Part shown: positions 1-15,495 of the stretch, in pieces | How positions within the stretch are numbered: the stretch's first letter is position 1 | Layout: each line of letters starts with the position of its first letter | Made by a program: the position numbers and the translations under genes | Notes under the pieces: model-generated | The model's input: only the letters and a program-made list of their open reading frames with translations | The model's database searches: none | What the model was told of the DNA's origin: nothing | IMG/VR virus record: IMGVR_UViG_3300043449_000450 | Span: 1 to 21,971 of that record | Length of the DNA stretch: 21,971 bases | Direction: 5' to 3' (one strand) | Source of the DNA: a virus

Positions 1-26
1 ACCAACAACTAACTAGGAGATATATG

Positions 27-218
27 ATGGCATTGAAACTGTGGACACTTCGCAATGGTCCCGGCGGAGCCTTGGTTATGAAAGAGAATGGCGCTGAGCC
101 GTACTACTTTGAGGACAAAGTAGCGGCTAAGCGGATGAGGGATAACCTTAATGGGGTTGCGCCTTTGACCCCTGTGGTTGTGGCTCATGGCCCTGACCAT
201 AAGAAGGCTAAGCAGTGA
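27..218 (+). CDS. Small hypothetical phage protein (63 aa)
   Basis: This is a small, charged, soluble protein of unknown function. No signal peptide, membrane span or recognisable domain is visible. The N-terminal half looks like a short beta-rich fold (Leu-Trp-Thr-Leu, then a Gly-Gly turn) and the C-terminal tail is basic (HKKAKQ). Two in-frame ATGs lie at 24 and 27. The Shine-Dalgarno AGGAG at 15-19 is 4 nt from the first and 7 nt from the second, so I prefer 27 (protein MALKLW...). It is the first gene of a + strand series, and a 6-bp hairpin begins at its stop codon. It is probably real because of the strong ribosome site and its position in a dense cluster, but no function can be assigned. 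Confidence 0.7.
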   Translation: MALKLWTLRNGPGGALVMKENGAEPYYFEDKVAAKRMRDNLNGVAPLTPVVVAHGPDHKKAKQ

Positions 219-230
219 GGCTTTGCCTCA
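216..230 (+). other. Short hairpin at the stop codon of the first gene
   Basis: TGAGGC (216-221) and GCCTCA (225-230) form a perfect 6-bp stem with a TTT loop. The stop codon TGA is inside the left arm. No T-tract follows, so it is not a classical terminator. It is the first of four hairpins that each follow a gene in 1-3420. Confidence 0.4.
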
Positions 231-283
231 ACCATAGCGTCGTGCCTAACTTCTTAAATCAACGGAACAAGCAGGAGATATGA

Positions 284-1276
284 ATGCGTTCCTCTGATGT
301 CTACAATCTGATCCTTGATCTACACCCCGTCCTTCGCCCCATTATGATCGAAGGTATGCCGGGTGGCGGTAAGACTTCCATCGCCAAGCAAGCTGCTAAG
401 TCTCTGGATAAGCCGATCATTGTCCGGCACCTGCCGTCCATGCTGGTTGAGGACTTCGGTGTTCCCGATTTGGGAACTTCTGCAACCTCGTTCGGCTATA
501 AACTTCCTGATTGGTTCCCTGAGCAGGGTAAGCCGGGGACTGAGAGTGGCGGTATCCTGCTGTTTGACGACCGTTCTCAGGCTGGTCCTGAGTTGCAGAA
601 AGTTCTTGCCCATATCATCCTTGAACGTGACCTTCATGGTCATAAGCTGGCTGATGGTTGGCAGATCATCTCCACTGGTAATCGGCAGTCTGACCGGGCT
701 GGTGCTAACCGTACTCTGTCCCATCTGGCTGACCGTGAGACTACGGTGGAGTACGAGACCCATCTGGATGACTGGTCTGACTACGCATTGAAGCATAGCT
801 TCGACCCGATGGTCATCGCCTTTATCCGGTTCCGGTCTAACCTTCTGCATGACTTCGACGCTAACCGTCCTAAGAATGCTACGCCCCGTGGTTGGGAAGC
901 GGTTAGCACCATGCTGCCCTATCTCAAGTCTGCCACTGAGTACGCTGCCATTGCTGGTACTGTCGGTGAGGGTCCTGCTGCTGAGTTCACTGGGTTCTGT
1001 AAGATTTACCGTAGCTTGCCTAACCCTGATGCAGTCTTGCTTGATCCTAGCAATGCAGCAGTTCCGACTGATCCGGCTACGCTTTATGCGCTGACTGGTT
1101 CTCTTGCCAGCCGCGCTACTGCTACCAACTTCGACCGGATGGTGACTTACGTATCTCGTATGCCTCCTGAGTTCTCGGTGTTGGCTGTTAAGATGTCGGC
1201 TACTCGTGACCCGTCACTGGCTAACACTCCTGCCTTCAATCGTTGGGCAGTGAACCATAAGGAAGTCCTGTTCTGA
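284..1276 (+). CDS. MoxR-type AAA+ ATPase
   Basis: This 330-aa AAA+ ATPase is probably a chaperone-like remodeller that acts with the VWA protein two genes downstream. Walker A is GMPGGGKT at residues 24-31. The Walker B strand is ILLFDD at 91-96, and the sensor-1 region (ISTGNR) is around 129-134. A conserved-looking LADRE segment near 148-152 may carry an arginine finger. The compact AAA core followed by a helical lid of about 150 residues fits the MoxR family. The expected catalytic Glu after the Walker B Asp is an Asp here, which may slow hydrolysis. The start at 284 has AGGAG at 273-277 with a 6-nt spacer; an ATG at 280 reads into an early stop. MoxR proteins usually work in pairs with VWA proteins, which fits the context. 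The substrate is unknown. Confidence 0.88.
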   Translation: MRSSDVYNLILDLHPVLRPIMIEGMPGGGKTSIAKQAAKSLDKPIIVRHLPSMLVEDFGVPDLGTSATSFGYKLPDWFPEQGKPGTESGGILLFDDRSQAGPELQKVLAHIILERDLHGHKLADGWQIISTGNRQSDRAGANRTLSHLADRETTVEYETHLDDWSDYALKHSFDPMVIAFIRFRSNLLHDFDANRPKNATPRGWEAVSTMLPYLKSATEYAAIAGTVGEGPAAEFTGFCKIYRSLPNPDAVLLDPSNAAVPTDPATLYALTGSLASRATATNFDRMVTYVSRMPPEFSVLAVKMSATRDPSLANTPAFNRWAVNHKEVLF

Positions 1277-1285
1277 GGATAAACA

Positions 1286-1312
1286 GGGGGGTTAGTGCCG
1301 AACTAATCCCCC
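1286..1312 (+). terminator. Strong intergenic hairpin after the MoxR gene
   Basis: An 11-bp stem (one G-T pair) is formed by 1286-1296 (six G then TTAGT) and 1302-1312 (ACTAAT then five C), with a 5-nt loop. It lies 10 nt after the MoxR stop. The downstream bases ACTTCTAA are not a real T-tract, so an RNA-processing or 3'-end protection role is as likely as termination. Confidence 0.5.
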
Positions 1313-1336
1313 ACTTCTAAGAAGTTAATCAACGGA
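1313..1336 (+). promoter_or_regulatory. Small inverted repeat plus shared leader word before the DUF3150-like gene
   Basis: ACTTC-TAA-GAAGT (1313-1325) is a perfect 5-bp inverted repeat. It is followed by AATCAACGGA at 1327-1336, which contains the start of the ribosome site. The same ten bases occur at 257-266 before the MoxR gene, also preceded by a CTTCTTA-like stretch. This could be an operator or a conserved leader. The function is not shown by the sequence. Confidence 0.3.
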
Positions 1337-1344
1337 GAAACCCT

Positions 1345-2196
1345 ATGAACCTCAATGACAAAGCCCTTCTCGTTCAGCTTTCCATCCGTCAGTGGACTGC
1401 ACGTAAGGTGGATAAACAAGTTACCTCTGAGGTGAACACCTCTAAGAGAGCTAGCGACAAGGCTGGTCGCTATAACAAGTCGCTGCTGCCTGAGAACCAA
1501 TACCTTGCGGATGTTAACTATAAGACTGGTCAAATCCGTAACGAGTTCTACTACAATACCCTGCCTTGGGGTATGGACGGGATGCAAATCCTGCCGTCTG
1601 CTAACTACCTCAACTTCATGTCGGAGTTCCGCAAGAAGAAAGCCGACTGGGAGTTCCGTGTTAAGGAGTTTATCGACAACTACGATACGCTTGTGCTGAC
1701 TGCACAGGCTGACTTGGGTGATCTGTTTAACCCTGCTGACTACCCGTCTGCCTCTGATCTGCATAAGAAGTTTAGCATCGACATCAACGTGATGCCGGTC
1801 CCGACTAATGACTTCCGTGTTAACCTTGCCAATGAAGAACTTAGCCAGCTTGAGGCTGAGTGGGAGCAGCGTAAACTTGCCTCGCAGAATGAGGCTATGA
1901 AGGATGTGTGGAACCGCCTCTATGAGCAGGTCTCCCGTGTTGCTGAACGGCTTGGCGATCCTAAGCGGGACTTCAAGCAGACTATCTTCGACACTGCCCT
2001 TGAAACCTGTGCCATGCTGACCCGTCTTAACTTCATGGATGACCCGAACCTTGAGGCTATGCGGTCTAAGCTGGAGGGTGCGCTTGTCGGGTTGGATGTC
2101 ACTGATGTCAAGGCTGATGCGTCACTGCGTCAAGATGTAGCAGAGACAACCAACGACATCATGGCTAAGATGTCTGTCTTTATGACTGGCCTCTGA
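1345..2196 (+). CDS. DUF3150-like protein between MoxR and VWA genes
   Basis: This 283-aa, mostly helical and charged protein has no signal peptide or membrane span. It resembles the DUF3150 family of phages and plasmids, whose genes often sit beside MoxR ATPase and VWA genes; I assign it from general sequence character and this context. The middle (about residues 65-95) has an aromatic, Gly/Pro-containing patch (NEFYYNTLPWGMDGM), and the rest is rich in heptad-like helices (about 90-125 and 150-270). The start at 1345 has GGAG at 1334-1337 with a 7-nt spacer. Its position inside the ATPase-VWA pair suggests an adaptor or substrate-recognition role, which is inference. No catalytic motif is visible. 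Confidence 0.75.
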   Translation: MNLNDKALLVQLSIRQWTARKVDKQVTSEVNTSKRASDKAGRYNKSLLPENQYLADVNYKTGQIRNEFYYNTLPWGMDGMQILPSANYLNFMSEFRKKKADWEFRVKEFIDNYDTLVLTAQADLGDLFNPADYPSASDLHKKFSIDINVMPVPTNDFRVNLANEELSQLEAEWEQRKLASQNEAMKDVWNRLYEQVSRVAERLGDPKRDFKQTIFDTALETCAMLTRLNFMDDPNLEAMRSKLEGALVGLDVTDVKADASLRQDVAETTNDIMAKMSVFMTGL

Positions 2197-2201
2197 GAAA
2201 C

Positions 2202-2221
2202 AGGGGTGGTTCGCCACCCCT
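2202..2221 (+). terminator. Hairpin with UUCG tetraloop after the DUF3150-like gene
   Basis: AGGGGTGG (2202-2209) pairs perfectly with CCACCCCT (2214-2221) around a TTCG loop, giving an 8-bp stem capped by a very stable UUCG tetraloop. It starts 6 nt after the stop codon and ends 12 nt before the next ribosome site. There is no T-tract, so mRNA stabilisation or processing is at least as likely as termination. Confidence 0.5.
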
Positions 2222-2245
2222 AACCCTTACTGAAAGGAAGCTAAC

Positions 2246-3382
2246 ATGACTGATCTCAAGACTCGCCTTTCCAAGGCTAAGACTAACCTGATCCTCGACC
2301 ACCCTTTCTTCGGCGCTCTTGCTATGAACATGCCGTTTGAACTGGTCCCTGAGGATCATCACATCAACACTGCTGCCACTGACGGCAAGAAGGTATGGTT
2401 TAATGAGAAGTTTATCAGTGAGTTGAACGATCTCGAACTTACGTTCCTTGTGGCTCACGAAGTGTGCCATCCTATGTTTGACCACAACGGTCGTCGCGGT
2501 TCTCGTGACCATCTCCGTTGGAATATGGCTGCTGACTATGTGATTAACGAGCTTCTGGTTAACGAGAAGATCGGCCAGATGATCGAAGGCGGTTGCTATA
2601 ATCCCACCCTGTACAAAACTGGTCGTGGTATCTCTGAGGGTATCTACGATCTGCTGCCTGAAGATAACGGTGGCGGCGGCGGTAAGTTTGGTCAGGGCGG
2701 TGACGGTCAGGGCTCCGCTTATGATGATGTCATGGATAGTGGACAGACTGAGGCTGAGCGTACTCAACAGGCTGAGGAGTGGAAGGTTAAAGTCGCTCAG
2801 GCTGCACAGTCAGCTAAGATGATGGGTAAACTCTCTGCCAACATGGCCCGGATCGTGGATAACACGCTCCAGTCTAAGGTTGATTGGCGAGATGTCCTTA
2901 GGAACTTTGTGGTCAAGGCTAAGAACGAGAGCCGTACTTGGGCTCGTCCTAACCGCCGCTTCGTAACTCAGGGATTGTACCTGCCCAGTGTGGATGGTGA
3001 AGCGACTGGTGAACTTGTTATCGCTGTTGATTGCTCTGGCTCCGTTGGTGATGCTGACCTGAACCGCTTCGCTGCTGAGTGCAAGGCGATTAAGACCGAC
3101 CTTAACCCTGCCAAGATGCACATCGTCTACTTCGACCATGATGTCTGTCACTACGATGCGTTTGGTCCCGACGATGAGTTGTCCATCAATGCTCATGGCG
3201 GTGGCGGTACGGCGTTTTCACCCGTATTCAAATATCTCACCGCCAATAACATCGAACCGATTGCCACTGTGTTCCTGACTGACCTGTACTGCTCTGACTT
3301 CGGTAAAGAGCCGGGACACCCTGTCCTCTGGGTTACTTACGGTACTGACAAGGCACCGTGGGGTGAAGTGGTGAAGATGTAA
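2246..3382 (+). CDS. Putative metallopeptidase fused to von Willebrand factor A domain
   Basis: This 378-aa protein has two parts. The N-terminal part carries a zinc-peptidase-like motif HEVCH at residues 71-75, followed by another His at 80, inside a helix; this matches the putative metallopeptidase domain (DUF2201 N-terminal type). A Gly-rich linker (about 141-156) leads to a helical region and then a VWA-like domain from about 250. The VWA metal site is DCSGS at 262-266, with Thr322 in a GGGGT motif and Asp346 in LTDLY as likely further ligands. The domain order is the same as in VWA-metallopeptidase proteins that partner MoxR ATPases. The start at 2246 has AAAGGAAG 5 nt upstream. It probably binds metal and is remodelled by the ATPase upstream; peptidase activity is unproven. 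Confidence 0.88.
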   Translation: MTDLKTRLSKAKTNLILDHPFFGALAMNMPFELVPEDHHINTAATDGKKVWFNEKFISELNDLELTFLVAHEVCHPMFDHNGRRGSRDHLRWNMAADYVINELLVNEKIGQMIEGGCYNPTLYKTGRGISEGIYDLLPEDNGGGGGKFGQGGDGQGSAYDDVMDSGQTEAERTQQAEEWKVKVAQAAQSAKMMGKLSANMARIVDNTLQSKVDWRDVLRNFVVKAKNESRTWARPNRRFVTQGLYLPSVDGEATGELVIAVDCSGSVGDADLNRFAAECKAIKTDLNPAKMHIVYFDHDVCHYDAFGPDDELSINAHGGGGTAFSPVFKYLTANNIEPIATVFLTDLYCSDFGKEPGHPVLWVTYGTDKAPWGEVVKM

Positions 3383-3390
3383 ACAATAAC

Positions 3391-3411
3391 GGGGGCGGCA
3401 CTGCCGCCCCC
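3391..3411 (+). terminator. Perfect GC-rich hairpin after the VWA gene
   Basis: GGGGGCGGC (3391-3399) pairs with GCCGCCCCC (3403-3411) around a 3-nt ACT loop, a 9-bp GC-only stem. It starts 8 nt after the stop and ends 4 nt before the AGGAGG of the next gene. There is no T-tract after it. It may end or attenuate the MoxR-VWA transcript, or protect its 3' end. Confidence 0.55.
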
Positions 3412-3426
3412 TCTCAGGAGGATAAG

Positions 3427-3660
3427 ATGGTTCAAGTAAGCAAAGCGATAGCTTACCTACACAAGGTCAGGGAGTTTCTTCCTGCTAACTTATCAGTGGA
3501 TGTGCGACTGACTTACATGCACAACCAGATCGAACTGTTCAACACGCATAACTTCTTAGACTTAGGGACGTTCTACTATGTCGGTGTCCCTCCTGAGGAG
3601 TTCTATGAGAAGTTCCTACTGCCCATCATAACAAGGGAGAGGATACGTGGATACCTCTAG
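3427..3660 (+). CDS. Hypothetical protein (77 aa)
   Basis: This small soluble protein has no recognisable domain. It is predicted to be largely helical at both ends, with an aromatic stretch in the middle (LGTFYYVGVPP). A perfect AGGAGG at 3416-3421 lies 5 nt before the ATG, so expression is likely efficient. It overlaps the next gene by 14 nt, which suggests coupled translation. It uses more ATA, AGG, TTA and CTA codons than the MoxR-VWA genes before it, suggesting lower codon adaptation. The function is unknown. Confidence 0.65.
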   Translation: MVQVSKAIAYLHKVREFLPANLSVDVRLTYMHNQIELFNTHNFLDLGTFYYVGVPPEEFYEKFLLPIITRERIRGYL

Positions 3661-3925
3661 GCAGACATGGGAAGATTACGGTGTCGTCATACCAGATGGG
3701 TACTGGTGTACGGTGTACTTAAGAGACCGTACAGACGGCACGTGGTTTGAGGTCGCCTTGTATGAGGACTTCGAGCATAAACTTTACCGGGTTGGAACCT
3801 TTGTTGTCCCCGTTGAAAAGCTAGCCCTACTCAATCGTAGAATACAGATAGCCTGTACAAAGTACCGACTTCGCTTACCTGTTTACGCTTATAAATACAA
3901 ACCTAGAAAGAGGAGAACGCCATGA
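3647..3925 (+). CDS. Hypothetical protein (92 aa, GTG start)
   Basis: This uncharacterised protein has alternating hydrophobic and charged residues in its first 60 residues, suggesting a beta-rich fold (YWCTVYLRD, WFEVALYEDFEHKLYRVGTFVV). The C-terminal tail is very basic (YKYKPRKRRTP), which could bind nucleic acid. The start is GTG at 3647, supported by a purine-rich GGGAGAGG at 3635-3642. It lies within the last codons of the upstream gene. Its stop overlaps the next gene's ATG by 4 nt (ATGA). No known family is recognised. Confidence 0.65.
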   Translation: MDTSRQTWEDYGVVIPDGYWCTVYLRDRTDGTWFEVALYEDFEHKLYRVGTFVVPVEKLALLNRRIQIACTKYRLRLPVYAYKYKPRKRRTP

Positions 3926-4596
3926 CTGTTACCCTTACTGAAAGCCTGCGCGGTGATCTGCGTAGAGAGTTCGTTGGCCGGATGGCTGAGTTCTACAGTA
4001 AGAAGAACGGCACCCTGCCCGATGGGTTCGCTGATCGTGTCTATAACCTGATGATGGGTGAGTACCTGCCGTCTCTGTCGCTTGTGCCTGAGATGTTTCT
4101 GACGCACATCCAGTCGTTCAGGCTGGAGCATAAGATCAGGGTCGCAGAGGGTGACATCATCCGGCACGCTAGCTTTGATGTTATGTTCGATAAGCCGATG
4201 CCGTGGGTGTCCTCGAATGCTAATAAGAGCGGGAAGTATGGCGGTGATATCTTCGGCGGTAAACTCAAGCGCCGTGGGTACTACTCCAATGACTACACTG
4301 TGGGTGATCTCGCCTCGTGGGGTGCTGTTGGCGATGAGTTGGTCGCTTACATGACCCAGCGAGTTAATGATGACATCCTGATGGAGAAACTTAGGGACGA
4401 GTTCCAAAAGCTGTTGGATCAGAACCGTACCCTTCGTCAACTTCTTAAGGCGTTTCCTGCACTCAAGCCTTTCGTTGCTCCCTCATTGCTGGACCGTCTG
4501 AAGTCTGAGCCTAAGGCTCGTGTCGGTAACGCTAGGGATGTGGACCTTCAGTTCCTGACGACGATGGCTGTGCAGTGCCGACTGCTCACGACCTAA
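3922..4596 (+). CDS. Hypothetical phage protein (224 aa)
   Basis: This soluble protein of unknown function has a helical N-terminal half (about residues 1-95) and a Gly/Ser-rich loop around 118-135 (SSNANKSGKYGGDIFGG). A long helical region at about 155-200 looks like a coiled coil (MEKLRDEFQKLLDQNRTLRQLL). GAGGAGAA lies about 6-13 nt before the ATG, and the ATGA overlap with the upstream gene indicates coupling. Codon use is similar to the MoxR-VWA block (GGT, CGT, CTG). The coiled coil hints at oligomerisation, which is inference. Confidence 0.75.
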   Translation: MTVTLTESLRGDLRREFVGRMAEFYSKKNGTLPDGFADRVYNLMMGEYLPSLSLVPEMFLTHIQSFRLEHKIRVAEGDIIRHASFDVMFDKPMPWVSSNANKSGKYGGDIFGGKLKRRGYYSNDYTVGDLASWGAVGDELVAYMTQRVNDDILMEKLRDEFQKLLDQNRTLRQLLKAFPALKPFVAPSLLDRLKSEPKARVGNARDVDLQFLTTMAVQCRLLTT

Positions 4597-4634
4597 CGAC
4601 TACCGCCTAACAACTTATCTAAAGGAGAACTGCA

Positions 4635-5405
4635 ATGGCTTGGTGGAAACAGAATAAGCGTAACAACTACTCCGATCTGGTTGCGCTATGGAAAACCTGT
4701 CGGAATAAGGAGAAGGGCAAGCCCCTTAACCAAGGGCATCGGCTGCTGCTGGCCGGTGAGAAGTTTATCATCACATACAACAGCTACCCTATCGCCTACA
4801 TCACACCGGATAACATCATTGAACTTGTTGATGTCAAGCTCAGCGGGGCGCTCTATAAGACGCTGCCCATCCTCGTGATGCGGTATGGTCAGGACAAGTA
4901 CCGGGTCGATCATATCAGTAGGGTTAAGACCCGTGGTACACACGACTACTGGCTGGACTTTAACGAGTTCAAATCGGAAGCCCATCCTCAGTACTTCGAG
5001 GGCATCAAGTTTAACTTGTTAACCGGAGAGTGTGTCAACCGTCTGCCTGATCTGAAGTACCGTGCTATCCCTGAAGTGTCTCGCCAGTGGAAGCGGGACA
5101 TTGGAGCGTGGCAGAAGGGGTGGAAAGTTCGTCAGCGGATGGGTGTTGCCGCAGGGTATGAGCGAGACATCACCGCTCTTGAGCATAATGCCCTAGTCCA
5201 TACCATTCTTAACCAGCCGCATGAGGATCGCCTTAAGCAAGTCGTTAAGTGCATCAAAGAGCAGGACTTCTCGGTCACTGCTTACGTATATCTCCGGCAC
5301 TACGGTGCGATGTATAACACTAACTTGGATGTCGAAGCCGGACTGACTTACTTGTTCAGTCGGTATCGTGACGACCTTCGCAAAATCTATGGAGTATTCG
5401 GATGA
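4635..5405 (+). CDS. Hypothetical phage protein (256 aa)
   Basis: This is an uncharacterised, basic, aromatic-rich protein. The first 130 residues look like alternating beta strands (KFIITYNSYPIAYITPDNIIELVDV, cut here by turns), and the rest is mainly helical, with several Trp residues around 152-165. There is no signal peptide, membrane span or known catalytic motif. AAAGGAGA at 4621-4628 gives a 6-nt spacer to the ATG. The stop overlaps the start of the HslV-like gene by 4 nt (ATGA), so the two are probably co-translated. I cannot name a family. Confidence 0.75.
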   Translation: MAWWKQNKRNNYSDLVALWKTCRNKEKGKPLNQGHRLLLAGEKFIITYNSYPIAYITPDNIIELVDVKLSGALYKTLPILVMRYGQDKYRVDHISRVKTRGTHDYWLDFNEFKSEAHPQYFEGIKFNLLTGECVNRLPDLKYRAIPEVSRQWKRDIGAWQKGWKVRQRMGVAAGYERDITALEHNALVHTILNQPHEDRLKQVVKCIKEQDFSVTAYVYLRHYGAMYNTNLDVEAGLTYLFSRYRDDLRKIYGVFG

Positions 5406-5827
5406 GTGTAGCTGTGTGGGACGGTACTACCCTTGCATGTGATCGTGGGGCCAGCGATGGCCCCACCATCTGGGAAGTTAACAAGATGCTGTACTACGGG
5501 AACTACGTCATCATCGGTGTCGGTCCTGTCGCTGATGTCGGCAGACTTATTGACTGGTATTTGACCGGCGCTAACCCTGACCACTTCCCCTATTCAGCAT
5601 CGGCTATGCTGCTGGTCGTCAGGAAGAGTGAGCGGAAGCTATATCAGTATGACCACTCAGCTACACCACGTATCTTTGAGGATACCAAGGTGGCCTTCGG
5701 TTCTGGTAAGGACTTCGCCTTCGGCGGCTTAGCTGCCGGGGCTACGGCAGAACAGGCAGTTCAAATAGCCTGTCGGTTTTCAACATCTTGTGGGCACGGA
5801 GTAGATAAGTATGACCCAATGGAATGA
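5402..5827 (+). CDS. HslV/proteasome-beta-like Ntn-hydrolase
   Basis: This 141-aa protein looks like the short phage relatives of HslV and proteasome beta subunits, which are N-terminal nucleophile hydrolases. Asp14 (ACDRG) matches the conserved Asp17, Lys28 (VNKML) matches Lys33, and the GSG turn is at 100-102 followed by an AAGATAEQAVQIA helix. The residue exposed after Met removal would be Ser2 rather than Thr. Ser can act as nucleophile in some Ntn-hydrolases, but activity here is unproven. HslV is about 175 residues, so this is shorter. No HslU ATPase gene is seen; a link to the MoxR ATPase upstream would be speculation. It overlaps its neighbours by 4 and 17 nt. Confidence 0.75.
   Translation: MSVAVWDGTTLACDRGASDGPTIWEVNKMLYYGNYVIIGVGPVADVGRLIDWYLTGANPDHFPYSASAMLLVVRKSERKLYQYDHSATPRIFEDTKVAFGSGKDFAFGGLAAGATAEQAVQIACRFSTSCGHGVDKYDPME
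5445..5466 (+). promoter_or_regulatory. Hairpin with GNRA loop inside the start of the HslV-like gene
   Basis: GTGGGGCCA (5445-5453) and TGGCCCCAC (5458-5466) form a perfect 9-bp stem around a GCGA tetraloop, a stable GNRA type. It lies 43 nt inside the coding region, over codons for residues 15-22. It may act as a translation or transcription pause. The role is inferred. Confidence 0.4.
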
Positions 5828-6458
5828 GATGAGCAGGGATGAGCGGACGAAAGAAATTGTTCGCCTTATTGAGCATGAGGATTTGTCCTACGGGGATATC
5901 GCATTCATGTTCGGTGTCTCTCGCAATGTGATCGCCGGACTTGTTAGCCGGTTTAAGGATGCCGGTGGCGTACTTATCAACCGCCGCATGACCTCAAAGA
6001 ACCAGTTCTATAACGATCCTGTGAAACGTGAGCGGGCTCTGTCCGGCACGGTGTACTTGGCTGAGACGGATAGCGAACGGGCCAAGCGTAAGGCAGAGAT
6101 CAACGCCAAGCGCAGCGAACTAGCTAAGAAGTTAGCTGCCGAGCGGAAGACGTTGCAGACTGTGGCTACTATGCCTCCGGCTTCTAGACCTAAGGTCGCT
6201 CCCCCTCAGGGGCTTACCGCTATGGAGCTAACCAACGACACTTGTCGTTGGCCTCAAGGCGAGGGACCGTACACATTCTGCGGCAATCCGACGCATCGAC
6301 ATGTCAACGGTAGAGCGGTGTACTGCGAAGCCCATGCCGTTGTCGCTTATAAAGTCTACGAGGGTAAGGGAGGTCGTCGTGTCAGTAAAAATAATGGAAC
6401 TTTTCTATTCGGAAGCAAGGGAGAAGGGCGCACAAATCAAGACGGTTCATGGAGGTAA
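5811..6458 (+). CDS. GcrA-like cell-cycle regulator homologue
   Basis: This 215-aa protein resembles GcrA, an alphaproteobacterial transcription factor that binds sigma-70 RNA polymerase and methylated GANTC promoters. The N-terminal 50 residues hold a helix-turn-helix (SYGDIAFMFGVSRNVIAGLV, 26-45). A basic linker rich in Lys, Arg and Glu follows (about 88-115). The C-terminal block has the GcrA signature: LTNDTCRWP (140-148), FCGNP (156-160) and YCEAHA (171-176), giving Cys145, Cys157, Cys172 and His175 as a likely metal site. The family is usually about 170 residues; the extra C-terminal tail after 180 is Gly-rich and overlaps the next gene by 80 nt. It may redirect host transcription, which is inference. 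The start ATG has GGAG at 5798-5801. Confidence 0.85.
   Translation: MTQWNEMSRDERTKEIVRLIEHEDLSYGDIAFMFGVSRNVIAGLVSRFKDAGGVLINRRMTSKNQFYNDPVKRERALSGTVYLAETDSERAKRKAEINAKRSELAKKLAAERKTLQTVATMPPASRPKVAPPQGLTAMELTNDTCRWPQGEGPYTFCGNPTHRHVNGRAVYCEAHAVVAYKVYEGKGGRRVSKNNGTFLFGSKGEGRTNQDGSWR
6366..6373 (+). promoter_or_regulatory. Ribosome site that decides a GTG start
   Basis: AAGGGAGG lies 5 nt before GTG 6379, within the GcrA-like reading frame. It is the reason I place the start of the next small gene at 6379 rather than at the upstream ATG 6301 or the internal ATG 6394, which lack good sites. Confidence 0.55.
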
Positions 6459-6618
6459 GCACATCAAGCTATTCCACGGGGCGCACCTTCTCTGTGTGCT
6501 GAGCGAGGGATGCAGGACTAACAAGTTAGATAAGCAAACCCTCGCCAAGAAACTCAAAGACTTTAACCGAAATCTAGATAAGGCACTAGAACATGGACAG
6601 AGAACAAGCACTGACTGA
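6379..6618 (+). CDS. Small HicA-like protein (79 aa, GTG start)
   Basis: This small basic protein resembles HicA mRNA interferases, which fold like a double-stranded RNA-binding domain. The segment after residue 15 runs KGAQIKTVHGGKHIKLFHG. His28 sits in a GGKH motif where HicA has its catalytic His in a GSH or GxH motif. A strand (HLLCVLSEG) follows, then a helix (KQTLAKKLKDFNRNL) as in HicA. No HicB antitoxin gene is adjacent, so it may be an orphan or a plain RNA-binding protein. The first 80 nt overlap the GcrA-like gene and the last 26 nt overlap the DUF6378-like gene. The family call is tentative. Confidence 0.5.
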   Translation: MSVKIMELFYSEAREKGAQIKTVHGGKHIKLFHGAHLLCVLSEGCRTNKLDKQTLAKKLKDFNRNLDKALEHGQRTSTD

Positions 6619-6910
6619 GGTCGGCAAGTGTGTCTTGCAGGACCGCAACGCCTCTTACGGTACACCAGAGGATAACTTCTCCGACATAGCTGCACGGTGG
6701 AGCATCTACCTGAAGCGCCGTGGTCTGCTCGTTGCGTCCCTTAAGAAGGCTGACGTTGCCGCCATGATGATCGACGTTAAGCTGGCTCGGATGGGCGCTA
6801 GCCCTAACAAGTTAGACAACTGGATCGACGCAGCAGGCTACGCAGTGTGTGGCGCTGAGGTGGTCGAAGAATCGCCGTTGAAGTCGGTGATCATGGAGGA
6901 TGCGGAATGA
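6593..6910 (+). CDS. DUF6378-like phage protein
   Basis: This 105-aa protein matches from memory the DUF6378 pattern: DRNASYGTPEDNFSDIAARW near 17-36, then DVAAMMIDVKLARM near 54-67, and DNWIDAAGYAVCGAEV near 75-90. The conserved His/Asn/Asp-rich helical bundle looks distantly like MazG-type nucleotide-handling folds, but activity is unknown. AAGG 9 nt upstream is a weak ribosome site; translation is likely coupled to the preceding gene, which it overlaps by 26 nt. Its stop overlaps the next ATG by 4 nt. Confidence 0.8.
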   Translation: MDREQALTEVGKCVLQDRNASYGTPEDNFSDIAARWSIYLKRRGLLVASLKKADVAAMMIDVKLARMGASPNKLDNWIDAAGYAVCGAEVVEESPLKSVIMEDAE

Positions 6911-7035
6911 TGAGGGTCGCTCTTATCTTTGCGGTTATGTGGATGGCCGTTGTCACCGCCATGATGGTGCGTCTTGTCCTCGTTGAGGAGAGGTTGACCG
7001 CCGTCGAGGTAGCTCGTCAGGTGCTACCGAAATGA
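6907..7035 (+). CDS. Small single-span membrane protein (42 aa)
   Basis: This peptide begins MMRVALIFAVMWM and has one hydrophobic helix (about residues 4-27), then an amphipathic, charged tail (EERLTAVEVARQVLPK). It is probably an inner-membrane protein with a short cytoplasmic or periplasmic tail. GGAGG at 6895-6899 lies 7 nt upstream of the ATG, and the ATG overlaps the upstream stop by 4 nt (ATGA). The good ribosome site and coupling support it despite its size. The function is unknown; a holin or spanin role cannot be concluded from one span. Confidence 0.6.
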   Translation: MMRVALIFAVMWMAVVTAMMVRLVLVEERLTAVEVARQVLPK

Positions 7036-7118
7036 TGGGCGAACGTAACGCAATCTGGGCGCTGCTTGCAGCGCTCGGAACTGTCCTCCTCGCTTACGTT
7101 ATGGTGAAGCTGTGCTGA
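7032..7118 (+). CDS. Tiny membrane peptide (28 aa)
   Basis: This 28-residue peptide starts MMGERNAIW, is mostly hydrophobic from residue 8 to 24 (ALLAALGTVLLAYVMV), and ends in KLC. It overlaps the upstream peptide gene by 4 nt (ATGA) and the downstream GTG-start gene by 7 nt, continuing a coupled chain. No independent ribosome site is visible, so it depends on coupling. At this length it could be chance, but the membrane-like composition right beside another membrane peptide is suggestive. Confidence 0.4.
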   Translation: MMGERNAIWALLAALGTVLLAYVMVKLC

Positions 7119-7327
7119 TCGAAGATGTTACGGATATGATTGCCAAGGCACGAGGGCATGATCCCGCTAAGTGCAACGACAAGTGCCAGTGTTATCGGCT
7201 GGCTCTCGACATTATGATCCGTGTCCGGCTGGGCATAGAAACCCGAGAGAACGAACTGCTTGAGAAGTTAAACGAACGAACCGACAAGCTGCTCCAGTTA
7301 CAACGGCTGGTGGGAGAGGAAGCATGA
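7112..7327 (+). CDS. Small helical protein with a Cys cluster (71 aa)
   Basis: This is an uncharacterised protein with a GTG start at 7112 and no clear Shine-Dalgarno, so the start could instead be ATG 7136. Near residue 21-27 it has KCNDKCQC, a three-Cys cluster that could bind metal. The C-terminal half (about 42-68) is a Leu/Glu/Lys-rich helix typical of a coiled coil (ENELLEKLNERTDKLLQLQ). Its end overlaps the next ATG by 4 nt. Confidence 0.55.
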   Translation: MLIEDVTDMIAKARGHDPAKCNDKCQCYRLALDIMIRVRLGIETRENELLEKLNERTDKLLQLQRLVGEEA

Positions 7328-7491
7328 GCGTTTCTGCCGAACACGCCGATAAACTCTACCGCGAACTTTATCAGAAGGACAGAGAGATCAAGGTGATGCG
7401 GGCACTTATTCTCCGGGCATATCATGCTCTGGAAGGTGACAATGACAAGGCTACTGCAATGCGGGCGCTAGAGGAGGCGCTAGGAAAATGA
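7324..7491 (+). CDS. Small helical protein (55 aa)
   Basis: This is a short, highly charged helical protein (MSVSAEHADKLYREL...) with no membrane span. It starts in an ATGA overlap with the upstream gene, with GGGAGAGGA about 5-13 nt before the ATG, and its stop overlaps the next gene's ATG in the same way. The two neat overlaps and the strong ribosome site support it as a real gene. Its function is unknown. Confidence 0.6.
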   Translation: MSVSAEHADKLYRELYQKDREIKVMRALILRAYHALEGDNDKATAMRALEEALGK

Positions 7492-7691
7492 TTGATCCGT
7501 ATGACATGATCGCCCTTCTGGAGAGCGAGGTGCAGTCCAAGACTAGGGACATACGGGAGCTAGAGGAGAAGTACAGCAAGCTGTTTCAGGAAGTATACCC
7601 CCTGAAGGAAGAGCTTCGTGCATATAAGGCGTACTATAAGTACTTAGATAGGTACTATGAGAAGGCCAAACAGAAGCTAGAGGGTAAGTGA
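7488..7691 (+). CDS. Small coiled-coil protein (67 aa)
   Basis: This is an almost entirely helical, charged protein with heptad-like spacing (ESEVQSKTRDIRELEEKYSK). A Tyr-rich segment follows at about 46-59 (AYKAYYKYLDRYYEKAK). AGGAGG at 7471-7476 lies 11 nt upstream and the start overlaps the previous stop by 4 nt. Its TGA stop shares one base with the polymerase ATG (TGATG), so it is tightly coupled to polymerase translation. Polymerase accessory function would be speculation. Confidence 0.6.
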   Translation: MIDPYDMIALLESEVQSKTRDIRELEEKYSKLFQEVYPLKEELRAYKAYYKYLDRYYEKAKQKLEGK

Positions 7692-9544
7692 TGGACGTTA
7701 TCACCATCGACTTTGAAACGTACTACGACAAGGAGTACTCCCTGTCGAAGATGACCACTGAAGCCTACATCCGTGACCCTCGCTTTGAGGTGATCGGTGT
7801 GGCGGTTAAGATCAACGATGGCCCGACCGACTGGTACAGTGGCGCTCACCCTGAGAAGTTTCTAGGTGGGTTCGACTTCAACAAGCGGGCGATCCTCTGC
7901 CACAACACCATGTTCGACGGGGCTATCCTCTCGTGGAAGTTTGGCATCAAGCCCCGGCTCTGGCTGGACACTCTGTCTATGGCTCGGCCCTTCCATAGCG
8001 TAACCACTGGCGTATCCTTGAAGGCGTTAGCTAGTTTCTACAAGCTGGGTGCAAAGGGCGAAGAAGTTTTTAATAACCTCGGGATGCACCGTGCCGACTT
8101 CACGAAGGAACGGATGGATGCCTACGCTGCCTACTGTGTGCAGGACGTAGACCTAACGTACAAATTATACAACATCCTCAAGAAGAAGCTGCCGGTCGGT
8201 GAGATCATGCTGATCGATCAGTGCCTTAGGATGTACACGGAGCCGACCATCGTTCTCGACACGACGATGCTTGCGATACACAAGCTGGAAGTTATTACTG
8301 GCAAAGCACGACTGCTGAACGAAGCCTCGTTGGTAGATCGTGACGAGCTTATGAGCAACGATAGGTTTGCTAAGTTGTTGCTGGCTGTCGGTATCGACCC
8401 GCCGATGAAAACCAGTAAGACCACGGGTAAGCAGACCTACGCCTTCAGCAAGACCGACACTGCCTTCACTAAACTTCTTGAGCATGACGATGAGAGGGTG
8501 ACAAATCTTGTCGCTGCCCGCCTCGGTGTGAAGTCTACCATTGAAGAGACGCGGACAGACCGGCTGATTGGTGTGGCTAATCGTGGGCCGCTGCCCATCT
8601 CCCTTAACTATTATGGCGCTCACACTGGGCGCTTCTCCGGCGGGGAGAAGCTGAACCTACAGAACCTCCCTCGCACTGGTGCATTGCGTAAGTCGTTGAT
8701 GGCCCCGCCGGGTAAAGTTCTTATTGCTTGCGATAGCGCACAGATCGAAGCCCGCACTCTGGCATGGATGGCTGGAGAAAAGAACTTACTGGAAGCGTTC
8801 CGCAACAAGCGAGATGTGTACTCAGAGTTTGCCTCCAAGGTCTATGGCCGCACCATTACTAAGGCTGACAAGACAGAGCGGCAGGTGGGCAAGACCTCCA
8901 TCCTCGGGCTTGGTTACAGTATGGGGGCAGAGAAGTTCCAGACGACACTGGCTCTCGGCATTGCTGGCCCTCGTGTGATGATCGACATGGATGAGGCACA
9001 GCGTGTCGTGAACCTCTACCGCATGGACAACGTGAAGATACAGCAGTTGTGGAACCGTTGTAACTACGCTCTCCATGCCATGTGTGAGGGGAAGGCGGAC
9101 CAGCTTCTCCCCGGCGTGACGTACAACAAGAACGTAATCACGCTGCCTAATGGAATGCCGTTGCGCTATGAGATGTTGACTAACTTCTCAAACAAGTACG
9201 CCTACGTTGGCGACATGCGTGTGTACAGAGATGTGGCGAAACGTCGCATCCTCAATCAAAAGATTGACGGCGACAACTGGACGAAGATATATGGGGGCAA
9301 GGTGGTTGAGAACATAACTCAGGCACTGGCCCGCATCATTGTGGCAGACCAACTGGTCAAGATCGGGCAGCGCTACAAGGTCGTGCTGCAAGTCCACGAT
9401 GAAGTGGTGATATGCGTAGATCAGGAGGAAGCAGAAGAAGCAGAAGCCTTTATGATGGAAGTGATGGCTACGCCTCCGGCGTGGGCACCGGACCTACCGC
9501 TGGCCTGTGAAGCAGGTGCCAGTGACCGCTACGGAAACTGTTAA
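7691..9544 (+). CDS. Family A DNA polymerase with 3'-5' exonuclease
   Basis: This is a replicative polymerase of 617 aa. The exonuclease part has Exo I as Asp7-x-Glu9 (TIDFETYY), Exo II around HNTMFD (71-76) and Exo III with Tyr148 and Asp152. Polymerase motif A is ACDSAQIEAR with Asp348. The O-helix has Arg397 and Lys401. Motif C is HDE at 569-571. The length matches phage polymerases without the 5'-3' exonuclease domain. The residue equal to E. coli Phe762 is Leu405. I start at ATG 7691, which is 6 nt after GAGGG (7680-7684) and shares a base with the upstream stop; GTG 7688 has too short a spacer. It works with the primase-helicase at the end of the cluster. Confidence 0.95.
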   Translation: MDVITIDFETYYDKEYSLSKMTTEAYIRDPRFEVIGVAVKINDGPTDWYSGAHPEKFLGGFDFNKRAILCHNTMFDGAILSWKFGIKPRLWLDTLSMARPFHSVTTGVSLKALASFYKLGAKGEEVFNNLGMHRADFTKERMDAYAAYCVQDVDLTYKLYNILKKKLPVGEIMLIDQCLRMYTEPTIVLDTTMLAIHKLEVITGKARLLNEASLVDRDELMSNDRFAKLLLAVGIDPPMKTSKTTGKQTYAFSKTDTAFTKLLEHDDERVTNLVAARLGVKSTIEETRTDRLIGVANRGPLPISLNYYGAHTGRFSGGEKLNLQNLPRTGALRKSLMAPPGKVLIACDSAQIEARTLAWMAGEKNLLEAFRNKRDVYSEFASKVYGRTITKADKTERQVGKTSILGLGYSMGAEKFQTTLALGIAGPRVMIDMDEAQRVVNLYRMDNVKIQQLWNRCNYALHAMCEGKADQLLPGVTYNKNVITLPNGMPLRYEMLTNFSNKYAYVGDMRVYRDVAKRRILNQKIDGDNWTKIYGGKVVENITQALARIIVADQLVKIGQRYKVVLQVHDEVVICVDQEEAEEAEAFMMEVMATPPAWAPDLPLACEAGASDRYGNC

Positions 9545-9553
9545 GAGGGAACC

Positions 9554-9811
9554 ATGAGTGAAGAAATGAGCACTGAGCTTACCGTACTGCGCCAGACCAT
9601 GACCGACTGCGAGTTCAAGCTGTCGGATGCCACTGCCAAAGTGGCAGAGGCAGAGACCAATGTGTCTCGCCTTGAGAAAGAACTTAGCCAGTGGCAGCGC
9701 TACCTTGACTATCAGCTTCGTCGTCGTGCGGCGCTGAATGCGAAGCTGCGGATTGATCGTGAGATGGTCCGGCAGATCGAAGACTACAACAGCCACATCG
9801 AACCCATGTGA
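9554..9811 (+). CDS. Coiled-coil hypothetical protein (85 aa)
   Basis: This is a small protein that is almost wholly helical, with heptad-like hydrophobic spacing from about residue 6 to 75 (VLRQTM, VAEAETNVSRLEKELSQW). It has no membrane span or Cys cluster. AGGGA sits 3 nt before the ATG and the gene begins 9 nt after the polymerase stop, so it is likely co-transcribed with it. The function is unknown; oligomerisation is likely from the coiled coil. Confidence 0.7.
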   Translation: MSEEMSTELTVLRQTMTDCEFKLSDATAKVAEAETNVSRLEKELSQWQRYLDYQLRRRAALNAKLRIDREMVRQIEDYNSHIEPM

Positions 9812-9817
9812 GGATGA

Positions 9818-10078
9818 ATGATTAACATCGACACGGCTATCCCTTTCCCTTCGGTTGACACCAACGTCCCTATCCCTTCCGGCACGGAGCGTCAGCGGTA
9901 TCCATTCCGCACTATGGAAACTGGATATAGCTTCTTTATACCCGCTGACCAGATAGCGGATGCACACCGGCTGCGTAGTGCGGCCTCCCACTATGCGAAG
10001 CGCAAGGGCTGGACGTTTACCATTAGAAAGGTGCAGGAGGATGGCGTTGACGGATATCGGTGCTGGCGCACAGCTTAG
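9818..10078 (+). CDS. Small phage protein with FFIP and AASHYAKRKG motif (86 aa)
   Basis: This protein has the layout of a small phage protein often seen near replication genes: a Pro-rich head, MGYSFF-like strand (METGYSFFIP, about 33-42), then a basic helix (RLRSAASHYAKRKGW) and a final strand (YRCWRT). I recognise the shape but recall no proven function. GAGG at 9810-9813 gives a 4-nt spacer to ATG 9818. Its last 38 nt overlap the next gene. Confidence 0.7.
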   Translation: MINIDTAIPFPSVDTNVPIPSGTERQRYPFRTMETGYSFFIPADQIADAHRLRSAASHYAKRKGWTFTIRKVQEDGVDGYRCWRTA

Positions 10079-10289
10079 GCGGCGCTTCGCTGAGAAGGTG
10101 GAAGAGCTACTCGCTCACCTCCACCAAGATGAGTATGGGGTGCAGGTCGGGCAGGTTTTCGTAGGCGGTAACGGCGGAATGATTAGCCGGGATACACTGC
10201 TTGTTATGAACGAAGCCTCCCGTCTGCTGGACGAAATTAAAAAGGAGTTAGAGGGAGATGACGGTAGTCAACGGCAAACCCCTCTTTAG
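10041..10289 (+). CDS. Small helical hypothetical protein (82 aa)
   Basis: This is a charged protein with two helical regions (about residues 11-32 and 57-74) separated by a Gly-rich turn (VFVGGNGGMIS). AGGAGG at 10035-10040 touches the ATG at 10041, so TTG 10047 (6-nt spacer) may be the true start, giving 80 aa. An upstream in-frame ATG at 9960 would run through the whole preceding gene and is unlikely. It overlaps the previous gene by 38 nt and dCTP deaminase by 32 nt. The function is unknown. Confidence 0.55.
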   Translation: MALTDIGAGAQLRRRFAEKVEELLAHLHQDEYGVQVGQVFVGGNGGMISRDTLLVMNEASRLLDEIKKELEGDDGSQRQTPL

Positions 10290-10710
10290 GGCCAACCCCA
10301 TCATCGGTATGTCCGACCGCAAGCACAAGTACAACGGCGTTAGCTGGGGGCTGAGCGAAGCGGGTTACGACATCCGCCTCAGGCAGGATGTTTACTTTGG
10401 TAAACAGAGCCGGTTTCAGTTGGCATCCACACTGGAAGAGTTTGACATGCCTGACAACTTAGTTGGCATCGTCCACGACAAGAGCACTCACGCCCGTAGC
10501 GGTCTATCTGTGTTTAACACCGTGATCGAACCGGGCTGGCGTGGGTTCCTCACCCTTGAACTTGTTTACCACGGCAGTGAGGATGACTTCGTTCTTCATG
10601 CTGGCACCGGCATCGCTCAGGTCCTGTTCCACAAGATCGAAGAGCCAGCCGAGTACAACGGCAAGTACCAAGGCCAACCCGACACGCCTGTGAAGGCTAA
10701 ACTGGAGTAA
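10258..10710 (+). CDS. dcd: dCTP deaminase family protein
   Basis: This 150-aa trimeric-fold enzyme converts dCTP to dUTP, a step towards dUMP and dTTP for phage DNA. Family signatures are Ser33-Glu-Ala-Gly-Tyr-Asp38, then KSTHARSGL (75-83), the block EPGWRGFLTLEL (91-102) holding the likely catalytic Glu101, and GIAQVLF (118-124). The sequence DTPV near the end is in the usual C-terminal lid position. It is shorter than E. coli Dcd (193 aa), as is common in phages. I cannot exclude a bifunctional dCTP deaminase/dUTPase. AAAGGAG at 10241-10247 is 10 nt before the ATG. Its stop is 4 nt from the LuxR-like gene. Confidence 0.85.
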   Translation: MTVVNGKPLFRANPIIGMSDRKHKYNGVSWGLSEAGYDIRLRQDVYFGKQSRFQLASTLEEFDMPDNLVGIVHDKSTHARSGLSVFNTVIEPGWRGFLTLELVYHGSEDDFVLHAGTGIAQVLFHKIEEPAEYNGKYQGQPDTPVKAKLE

Positions 10711-10714
10711 GAAA

Positions 10715-10975
10715 ATGTCTATGCAGCACGACTACACCTACGACCCCAACAGCACGTTCACTGATCGCGTTAAAACCCTGTCTCCTCGTGAGCATCAGAT
10801 TGTTCGTATGGCAATGGATGGCTTGACTAACAAGGCTATCGGGACCAAGCTCCAACTTTCTTTCCGCACTGTGGAAGTCCATCGCCGTCACGCCTGTGCA
10901 AAGTTGGGTGCTGAGAACTCATCCCACATGGCGCGTATCTATATCGAAGGCATCACTGGAGTTGCGCTGCCGTGA
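10715..10975 (+). CDS. LuxR-type HTH DNA-binding protein
   Basis: This 86-aa protein is essentially a stand-alone LuxR/GerE helix-turn-helix domain. The pattern TLSPREHQIVRMAMDGLTNK (21-40) leads to AIGTKLQLSFRTVEVHRR (41-58) and KLGAENSS, as in response regulator C-termini. It lacks a receiver or autoinducer domain, so it is presumably a constitutive or partner-controlled regulator. A second Met lies two codons in. GGAGTAAG upstream is a moderate ribosome site. The end overlaps the GTG start of the nuclease gene by 4 nt. It may control phage early genes or the host. Confidence 0.85.
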   Translation: MSMQHDYTYDPNSTFTDRVKTLSPREHQIVRMAMDGLTNKAIGTKLQLSFRTVEVHRRHACAKLGAENSSHMARIYIEGITGVALP

Positions 10976-11637
10976 CCGAACTGACCCACTCGTACTCTTC
11001 CATTAAGATGTTTGAGAACTGCCCGCTGCGTTACTATGAGCAGCGGATCAAGAAGTCTGTGGTCGATCCGGGTGGGGAAGCCTCCAAGCACGGAGAGCGT
11101 ATTCACAAGTTTATCGAAGACCGACTGCGTTCCAACCAGCTTCTGCCTGACGAGATGGCGGACATTGAGCCTTGGGTGCAGTCGGTCGAACGCCTCGCTG
11201 ATGGGCATGAGCTTTTCATTGAGCACGAGCTTACGATAAACAAGTCAATGACACCGACAGGGTGGTGGGACGCTGACGCTTGGCTCCGCTCCAAGCTGGA
11301 TATTCTGATTACCCGTGGCGATGGTAAGGCCCTCGTCATGGATTGGAAAACCGGCAAGCGGCGCACTGATCCGTTCCAGTTGCAGCTATTCGCTGCTCAA
11401 GTGTTTACCCACTTCCCTGCCGTTGATGAGGTTAAGACCACACTGGTCTGGATTAAGGACAGGGCGCTGGATAGCAACGTCTATCGCCGCTCGGCACACG
11501 CTGCGCTATGGGAGGACACCCTCTCTCGCATCGCTCGTATCGAACAGGCAGACGCTCATAACGTGTGGCCCGCTAAACCCAGTGGGCTGTGCCGCTTCTG
11601 CCCTTGCTTTAATTTCTGCGACTACGCAAAGAAGTAG
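10972..11637 (+). CDS. PD-(D/E)XK nuclease, RecB/Cas4-like with likely Fe-S site
   Basis: This 221-aa nuclease resembles RecB-nuclease/Cas4-like proteins of phages. The N-terminus has SYSSIKMFENCP, where Cys17 is the first possible cluster ligand. His45 lies in the GERIHK helix. The catalytic core has Asp110 (KLDILI) and Asp124-x-Lys126 (LVMDWKTGKR), followed by the QLQLFA helix with Gln136. The C-terminal cluster has Cys207, Cys210, Cys212 and Cys216 (LCRFCPCFNFC), a spacing that fits a 4Fe-4S site with Cys17. The likely substrate is DNA ends or flaps during recombination. The start is GTG 10972, in a 4-nt overlap with the HTH gene. It is followed by a VRR-NUC nuclease and an SNF2 helicase. 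Confidence 0.85.
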   Translation: MTELTHSYSSIKMFENCPLRYYEQRIKKSVVDPGGEASKHGERIHKFIEDRLRSNQLLPDEMADIEPWVQSVERLADGHELFIEHELTINKSMTPTGWWDADAWLRSKLDILITRGDGKALVMDWKTGKRRTDPFQLQLFAAQVFTHFPAVDEVKTTLVWIKDRALDSNVYRRSAHAALWEDTLSRIARIEQADAHNVWPAKPSGLCRFCPCFNFCDYAKK

Positions 11638-11664
11638 TTGACACCCTGAAAGGGATATGAAAGT

Positions 11665-14215: not shown

Positions 14216-14227
14216 AGGAGGATATCC

Positions 14228-15452: not shown

Positions 15453-15459
15453 CGTCAGC

Positions 15460-15486
15460 GCGGGGGCTGCGGCCCCCGCTTGTTCT
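15460..15486 (+). terminator. Likely intrinsic terminator before the primase-helicase gene
   Basis: GCGGGGGC (15460-15467) and GCCCCCGC (15472-15479) form a perfect 8-bp stem with a TGCG loop, followed directly by TTGTTCT (15480-15486). This is the best intrinsic terminator of the window. It lies 7 nt after the HTH gene stop. It would fall inside the coding region if the primase started at ATG 15445, which favours the start at 15496. Confidence 0.7.
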
Positions 15487-15491
15487 GAGGG
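15487..15491 (+). promoter_or_regulatory. Ribosome site for the primase-helicase
   Basis: GAGGG lies 4 nt before ATG 15496, just after the T-tract of the terminator. ATG 15445 has no comparable site. Confidence 0.5.
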
Positions 15492-15495
15492 CAGC

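What the first reader, a model, noticed from the sequence alone, without database searches (positions are those of the whole stretch)
5811..6458. Phage GcrA-like regulator suggests host cell-cycle interference
The signatures TNDTCRWP, FCGNP and YCEAHA are typical of GcrA. Host GcrA acts with CcrM-methylated GANTC sites, so a phage copy could redirect sigma-70 holoenzyme or exploit methylation. It also helps to fix the host as alphaproteobacterial. The N-terminus carries a divergent HTH.
Basis: partly seen in the sequence, partly recalled or inferred. Interest (0 to 1): 0.6.

Follow-up and report, generated by a model that had tools for sequence, protein, structure and literature searches.

The report
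Divergent phage GcrA-family sigma-70 cofactor
This bacterial virus carries its own version of a bacterial protein (GcrA) that steers the host's gene-reading machine; such genes are already known in phages, but here the half that grips the host machine is intact, the half that reads DNA is altered, and the virus has almost erased from this stretch of its DNA the short methylation site that GcrA normally reads.

Summary
Confirmed: ORF 5811-6458 (+, 215 aa) is a GcrA-family protein (Pfam PF07750, 52 bits, cut-off 26.9). A model of its C-terminal domain matches, first of ~350,000 PDB chains, the three solved GcrA sigma-interacting domains. It is not an equivalog of cell-cycle GcrA (NCBIfam 36 bits, cut-off 280).

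New here: (1) the gene is syntenic in the nearest relative (43% identical); elsewhere in the lineage GcrA or its sigma domain sits in three other slots. (2) The window has 2 GANTC sites where ~95 are expected (codon-shuffled coding expectation 49 +/- 5), the most avoided of 256 gapped 5-mers. (3) Sigma-domain consensus residues are mostly kept (11 of 13, residues 145-179) but only 11 of 27 in the DNA-binding domain; a lysine present in 61 of 61 cellular GcrAs is Leu here and Val in the relative. (4) An isolated Rhizobium phage with the same replication-gene order, with no GANTC in 60.9 kb, encodes a 71-aa sigma-domain-only version.

Best reading: a sigma-70 cofactor uncoupled, at least on phage DNA, from CcrM methylation. 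Binding and function are untested; the exact mechanism is open.

The parts
5811..6458 (+). Phage GcrA-family protein, 215 aa
   Evidence: PF07750 E 1.3e-13; PHROG 16311 (unknown function) 6.9e-13; PDB profile search with phage+cell alignment hits GcrA 7ye1 at 167 bits
5820..5972 (+). N-terminal HTH DNA-binding domain (residues 4-54)
   Evidence: AF2 helices 9-22, 27-34, 38-50 at high pLDDT; scores only 8 bits against an HMM of cellular GcrA DBDs, and the relative L002 4.6 bits
5922..5960 (+). Predicted recognition helix, residues 38-50 (RNVIAGLVSRFKD); Leu44 replaces a Lys present in 61 of 61 cellular GcrAs, Ser46 replaces His (58 of 61)
   Evidence: column comparison; helix 38-50 from the model
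5973..6203 (+). Linker (residues 55-131) with a predicted helix 87-118
   Evidence: model; linker poorly conserved in alignment
6204..6359 (+). Sigma-interacting domain (SID), residues 132-183, with C145, W147, P148, G150, F156, C157, G158, Y171, C172, H175, A179 retained
   Evidence: SID-only model: best PDB matches 5yix_B (prob 0.99, TM 0.72 by target length), 7ye2_G, 7ye1_G; columns
6384..6455 (+). C-terminal tail (residues 192-215), predicted disordered, overlaps the next ORF in another frame
   Evidence: pLDDT < 50 at 192-212; tail absent in L002
6379..6618 (+). Next gene in the operon, 79 aa, conserved next to GcrA in L002 (41%), function unknown
   Evidence: synteny; no Pfam match
5402..5827 (+). 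Preceding gene: HslV/proteasome-type peptidase-like protein, overlaps the GcrA start by 17 bases; same neighbour in L002
   Evidence: PHROG 1040 5e-24, PF00227 sub-threshold; synteny
2260..2264 (.). One of only two GANTC sites in the window, in codons 5-7 of the metallopeptidase gene; not conserved in L002
6869..6873 (.). Second GANTC site, inside the DUF6378 gene; not conserved in L002

Best explanation
The gene encodes a GcrA-family sigma-70 cofactor of a phage that infects an alphaproteobacterium. Shown by computation: the protein has an HTH domain and a GcrA sigma-interacting domain (SID), the SID is the better kept half, and the phage stretch held here is nearly free of GANTC. Inferred: the SID binds domain 2 of the host sigma-70, as host GcrA does, and couples the altered HTH to the host holoenzyme during infection. 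Because phage DNA offers almost no GANTC and the DNA-reading helix has lost residues near-invariant in host GcrA, I think it most likely works independently of CcrM methylation. It would shift the holoenzyme away from methylated host promoters, by displacing host GcrA from sigma-70, and towards phage promoters or promoters with a different site.
For: PF07750 over cut-off; SID model's top three PDB matches are all GcrA SIDs; SID keeps 11 of 13 near-invariant residues between 145 and 179 while the DBD keeps 11 of 27; 8.0 bits (DBD) against 41.0 bits (SID) with HMMs of cellular GcrA; Lys44 (61 of 61 cells) is Leu here and Val in L002, His46 is Ser/Asn; GANTC 2 observed, about 95 expected, 49.3 +/- 5.4 in codon-preserving shuffles of the coding sequence; Rhizobium phage RHph_TM3_14A, sharing this replication-gene order, has 0 GANTC in 60.9 kb (218 expected) and a stand-alone 71-aa SID with only 39 nt of stop-free frame upstream and no DBD in any frame of 900 nt; seven further viral loci have a SID without a GcrA DBD; GcrA or SID genes occupy four different slots in a conserved gene order, which suggests repeated gain.
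Against: No binding or expression data. W4, R38, N39, G43 and R47 are kept, so the HTH may still read GANTC. GANTC absence also suits a protein meant only for host promoters. The link between GANTC depletion and DBD drift across phage GcrAs is weak (rank correlation p 0.10; depleted against other p 0.02 for the DBD, 0.21 for the SID). GANTC-free relatives without any detected GcrA exist (L003, L027), so GANTC loss does not need GcrA. The rest of the genome (perhaps 30 kb) is not in the record.
Confidence: 0.5

Rival explanations
1. The protein acts as a surrogate host GcrA: it binds CcrM-methylated GANTC promoters of the host chromosome and turns on replication-phase genes, so that replication machinery is available in any infected cell (the Gill 2012 / first-reader model). 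The phage avoids GANTC so that its own DNA does not soak up the protein or the host GcrA.
For: Published model for phiCbK (PMC3556154); HTH keeps W4, R38, N39, G43, R47; phage DNA nearly free of GANTC; the gene sits among replication genes.
Against: DNA-reading helix lacks Lys44 and His46 in both family members; DBD is nearly unrecognisable to a cellular DBD model (8.0 and 4.6 bits); a related GANTC-free phage has only the SID, which could not read promoters at all.
Confidence: 0.27
2. It is a sigma-70 decoy: the SID occupies sigma-70 domain 2 and blocks host GcrA, shutting off GcrA-dependent host genes, with no DNA-reading role of its own. The HTH gives only weak, unspecific DNA affinity.
For: SID better kept than DBD in the window; SID-only version in RHph_TM3_14A and SID-without-GcrA-DBD proteins in other viral loci.
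Against: The window and L002 keep a confidently folded HTH, and their HTHs resemble each other, which argues for a DNA-binding role.
Confidence: 0.15
3. The similarity is to the Cys-rich fold only: a small metal-binding regulator, not acting on sigma-70.
For: C145/C157/C172/H175 spacing looks like a metal site (inference); sigma binding is untested.
Against: Matches extend beyond the Cys motif: 11 of 13 conserved SID residues, GcrA SIDs are the only credible PDB matches, and the HTH-linker-SID order is kept.
Confidence: 0.08

Closest known systems
Caulobacter crescentus GcrA (PDB 7ye1, 7ye2; SID 5yix; DBD 5yiu/5yiv/5yiw/5z7i)
   Same: HTH - linker - SID order, SID signature C-[KR]-W-P-x-G ... 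F-C-G ... Y-C-x-x-H ... A-Y, SID fold
   Different: Recognition helix altered (Lys to Leu, His to Ser), Trp21 and Gly24 positions changed, 4-residue insertion after Trp4, longer linker, extra tail; NCBIfam equivalog score 36 against cut-off 280; lies in a phage with almost no GANTC
phiCbK gp222 and other Shapirovirus GcrA homologs (Gill 2012, PMC3556154)
   Same: Phage-encoded GcrA-family protein; in both phages upstream of a polA-type gene
   Different: Different phage type (200 kb siphovirus); about 25% identical; better-kept DBD (36 bits for the near-identical RBC57 copy)
GcrA-like proteins of Rhizobium phages RHph_X2_24 and RHph_Y1_10, Agrobacterium phages Atu_ph08 (PMC6630229) and 7-7-1 (gp14, unannotated)
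   Same: GcrA-family genes in rhizobial phages; X2_24 is also almost free of GANTC (2 in 46 kb)
   Different: X2_24 and Y1_10 fall on other branches of the tree (82-84% support only); no shared gene slot with the window seen
EVB41_066 of Rhizobium phage RHph_TM3_14A (SID only)
   Same: Same replication-gene order and SID signature; GANTC-free genome
   Different: 71 aa, no DBD, another slot (between RecB-like nuclease and VRR nuclease); annotated only as hypothetical
GANTC-depleted pelagiphages (PMC9516812)
   Same: Published precedent for phages of CcrM-bearing hosts that purge GANTC
   Different: No GcrA was described there in the passages read; the difference was seen mostly in Autographivirinae

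Membership tests
GcrA family (Pfam PF07750) | Full-length profile match over the curated cut-off | tested here: met
   52.1 bits against 26.9, residues 10-183
GcrA family (Pfam PF07750) | C-terminal sigma-interacting domain: conserved residues and fold | tested here: met
   11 of 13 residues; best PDB matches 5yix_B, 7ye2_G, 7ye1_G
GcrA family (Pfam PF07750) | N-terminal HTH with the helix TRNAVIGKVHRL | tested here: inconclusive
   HTH present, R38 N39 G43 R47 kept, Lys44 to Leu, His46 to Ser; 8.0 bits against a cellular DBD model
Cell-cycle GcrA equivalog (NCBIfam NF050816) | Score over the equivalog cut-off (280 bits) | tested here: not met
   35.8 bits
Cell-cycle GcrA | Binding of sigma-70 domain 2 | not testable with these tools
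   needs pull-down or co-structure
Cell-cycle GcrA | Methylation-dependent binding of GANTC | not testable with these tools
   needs EMSA; only 2 GANTC sites in the window
GcrA/CcrM pair encoded together | N6-adenine methyltransferase in the same genome | tested here: not met
   no N6_N4_Mtase in 19 related phage records and no methyltransferase match among the main window proteins; the rest of this phage genome is unseen

The most novel reading that the evidence does not exclude
Phages of CcrM-bearing bacteria repeatedly take GcrA for its sigma-70-binding half alone, altering or dropping the methyl-DNA-reading half while purging GANTC from their genomes. They would thus detach RNA polymerase from the host's methylation-driven cell-cycle programme: a methylation-blind sigma-70 adaptor, with SID-only 'mini-GcrA' as the extreme form.
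Probability: 0.3. Interest if true: 0.68.

Novelty: new variant of a known kind. Interest (0 to 1): 0.45.

Why it matters
GcrA ties RNA polymerase to DNA methylation and so to the cell cycle in Alphaproteobacteria. If phages keep the sigma-binding half and abandon methylated sites, that is a new way of taking over host transcription, beside the known sigma-domain-4 anti-sigma proteins of phages. It also makes a long-standing suggestion about phage GcrA (2012) testable with isolated Rhizobium phages that carry a 71-aa SID-only protein.

Tried and rejected
Single-sequence scans of viral contigs with the window GcrA found no relatives and with the L002 GcrA only itself; a mixed alignment had no searchable stretch; a DNA signature of the SID worked. 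Foldseek with the full-length model gave only generic HTH matches, so the SID was folded alone. Positional conservation of the two GANTC sites was tested and rejected: neither is shared with L002. A methyltransferase partner was sought and not found in relatives. A tie between GANTC depletion and DBD drift over 69 phage GcrAs is weak and is not relied on. Locus L271 looked SID-only but has the DBD in another frame upstream (frameshifted gene) and was excluded. The guess that the next ORF is HicA-like found no support. One tree puts window and L002 together (97) but leaves deep branches unresolved; it shows a phage GcrA nested among Caulobacter ones (L301), so more than one acquisition is likely. 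The SID signature used to collect phage GcrAs favours intact SIDs, so the family-wide DBD/SID contrast is biased; the same caution applies to the window, which was noticed by its SID motifs. A scan of viral contigs with the 71-aa SID-only protein found no relatives.

Full report
What is there. Pfam GcrA (PF07750) matches residues 10-183 at 52.1 bits against a cut-off of 26.9. NCBIfam's equivalog model for cell-cycle GcrA gives 35.8 bits against 280, so it is a family member but not an equivalog. The window is a 21,971-base virus record. Its other genes are a MoxR-type ATPase, a VWA metallopeptidase, an HslV-like peptidase, family A DNA polymerase, dCTP deaminase-like protein, a small LuxR-type HTH, PD-(D/E)XK nuclease, SNF2 helicase, a DUF927 primase-helicase and a 1192-aa minus-strand protein. 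The polymerase places it near Rhizobium phages RHph_TM3_14A/TM27/TM29 (37.5%) and, more distantly, KPP25-like Pseudomonas phages; hundreds of viral contigs carry closer relatives.

Gene context and history. The nearest relative, contig L002 (polymerase 73% identical), has a 43% identical GcrA in the same slot, between the HslV-like gene and the small ORF plus DUF6378 gene. Of 50 lineage records searched, three carry GcrA: L002, L004 and L044; many records are fragments. In L004 it lies between polA and the RecB-like nuclease gene, in L044 between a small HTH gene and the primase gene, and in RHph_TM3_14A a SID-only gene lies between the RecB-like and VRR nuclease genes, all within one conserved gene order. 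Four slots suggest repeated gain or relocation. In a tree of 97 GcrAs window and L002 are sisters (97), on a branch apart from the cellular ones, with most deep branches unresolved. Among 385 sampled alphaproteobacterial genomes the best match to the window/L002 pair scores only 50 bits, so no recent host donor was seen.

Structure. A full-length AlphaFold2 model (49-row alignment) has a confident HTH (helices 9-22, 27-34, 38-50) and SID, with a disordered tail. The SID folded alone matches 5yix_B (GcrA SID with sigma-70 domain 2; probability 0.99, TM 0.72 by target length), then 7ye2_G and 7ye1_G; the next match is not credible. The Foldseek E-values are modest (0.08-0.2), as expected for so small a domain; the ranking is what counts. 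A profile of the alignment finds full-length GcrA in the PDB at 167 bits.

The two halves are kept unequally. Among columns conserved in at least 90% of 61 cellular GcrAs, the window keeps 11 of 27 in the DBD and 11 of 16 in the rest; within residues 145-179 it keeps 11 of 13. Lys44, present in all 61, is Leu here and Val in L002; His46 (58 of 61) is Ser and Asn. HMMs of cellular domains score the window's DBD at 8.0 bits and its SID at 41.0. Residue contacts in the GcrA-DNA structures could not be checked, as that paper is not held.

GANTC. The window has 2 GANTC sites; a first-order expectation is about 95 and codon-preserving shuffles of its genes give 49.3 +/- 5.4, minimum 34 of 300 shuffles. 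It is the most avoided of all 256 gapped 5-mers of this shape, while GATC occurs 103 times. Both sites lie inside genes and neither is shared with L002. Cellular loci around gcrA are themselves moderately poor (0.36-0.40 of expectation), and 77 viral GcrA loci pool at 0.31, with 17 below 0.1, so the window (0.02) is extreme even for this class. In the polymerase lineage the ratio runs from 0 to about 1.4 and the four GcrA-bearing records lie at 0.02-0.43 against a median of 0.73 for the rest (one-sided p 0.02, relatedness not corrected). GANTC depletion in phages of CcrM-bearing hosts is known for pelagiphages (PMC9516812). It supports an alphaproteobacterial host here; that host is inferred, not shown.

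SID without DBD. RHph_TM3_14A has no GANTC in 60,889 bases (218 expected) and encodes EVB41_066, 71 aa, CRWPIGEHPTMYC...YCTAHSRMSYTP. Its Pfam GcrA score is 23.3 bits, just under the cut-off, covering only the SID part. Only 39 nt upstream are stop-free and no GcrA DBD is found in 900 nt upstream in any frame. Three further isolates carry an identical copy. Seven viral loci of the signature scan likewise have a SID with no GcrA DBD upstream (L284, L262, L299, L245, L259, L281, L251; for L262 only 417 nt upstream were held), whereas L271 is a frameshifted full gene. All 131 cellular hits had a DBD, but they were collected as full-length GcrAs.

How it probably works. In Caulobacter GcrA binds sigma-70 domain 2 by its SID and methylated promoters by its DBD (PMC7403470; PMC3667746). 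Shown here by computation: family, domain order, SID fold, unequal conservation, near-absence of GANTC. Inferred: binding of host sigma-70 and action during infection. Since phage DNA has almost no GANTC, methylation-dependent activation of phage promoters in this stretch is unlikely. A methylation-blind adaptor or competitor of host GcrA fits the altered helix and the SID-only relative best; a surrogate host GcrA acting on the chromosome is the main rival and is not excluded.

Prior art. phiCbK GcrA and its proposed role (PMC3556154; cited again in PMC9437464), Atu_ph08 (PMC6630229), and annotated GcrA-like genes of Rhizobium phages. In the papers found I saw no report of SID-only forms or of GANTC avoidance in GcrA-bearing phages; five literature searches are not exhaustive.

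Noticed in passing
window 1-21971: GANTC is almost absent (2 sites) and CCNGG is the second most avoided gapped 5-mer (34 against 90 expected).
   Followed up: yes
L082:24939-25154 (Rhizobium phage RHph_TM3_14A, EVB41_066): Unannotated 71-aa stand-alone GcrA sigma-interacting domain in a completely GANTC-free 60.9 kb genome.
   Followed up: partly
L347:19683-20153 (Agrobacterium phage 7-7-1, gp14): GcrA-like HTH plus SID protein annotated only as hypothetical, near the DNA polymerase gene.
   Followed up: partly
L082:30610-33693 (EVB41_076): Annotated as putative integrase but aligns along most of its length with the window's DUF927 primase-helicase (22%, E 1.6e-46); probably a misannotation.
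   Followed up: no
L348:37589-38001 (Rhizobium phage RHph_X2_24): This GcrA-bearing phage with only 2 GANTC in 46 kb also has a gene annotated as Srd, postulated decoy of host sigma factor.
   Followed up: no
window 1-15500: Fewer sigma-70-like promoter matches than shuffled sequence gives (3 against 10.3 +/- 2.4); the plus-strand genes form long runs with small gaps.
   Followed up: no
window 10715-10975: 86-aa stand-alone LuxR/GerE-type HTH protein next to the nuclease gene, a second candidate transcription regulator.
   Followed up: no
window 5402-5827: HslV/proteasome-like 141-aa protein covering about half of its PHROG profile, syntenic in L002 and L027.
   Followed up: no
L271:9894-10442: Phage gcrA split by an apparent frameshift between DBD and SID; sequencing error, decay or frameshifting not distinguished.
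   Followed up: partly
L301:1289-1813: Viral-contig GcrA nested among Caulobacter GcrAs, with no GANTC in the 4.1 kb held; looks like a recent acquisition.
   Followed up: no
control genome Sulfolobus acidocaldarius: The Pfam GcrA model rings over its cut-off in this archaeon, which lacks the GcrA/CcrM system as far as I know; probably an HTH cross-hit.
   Followed up: no
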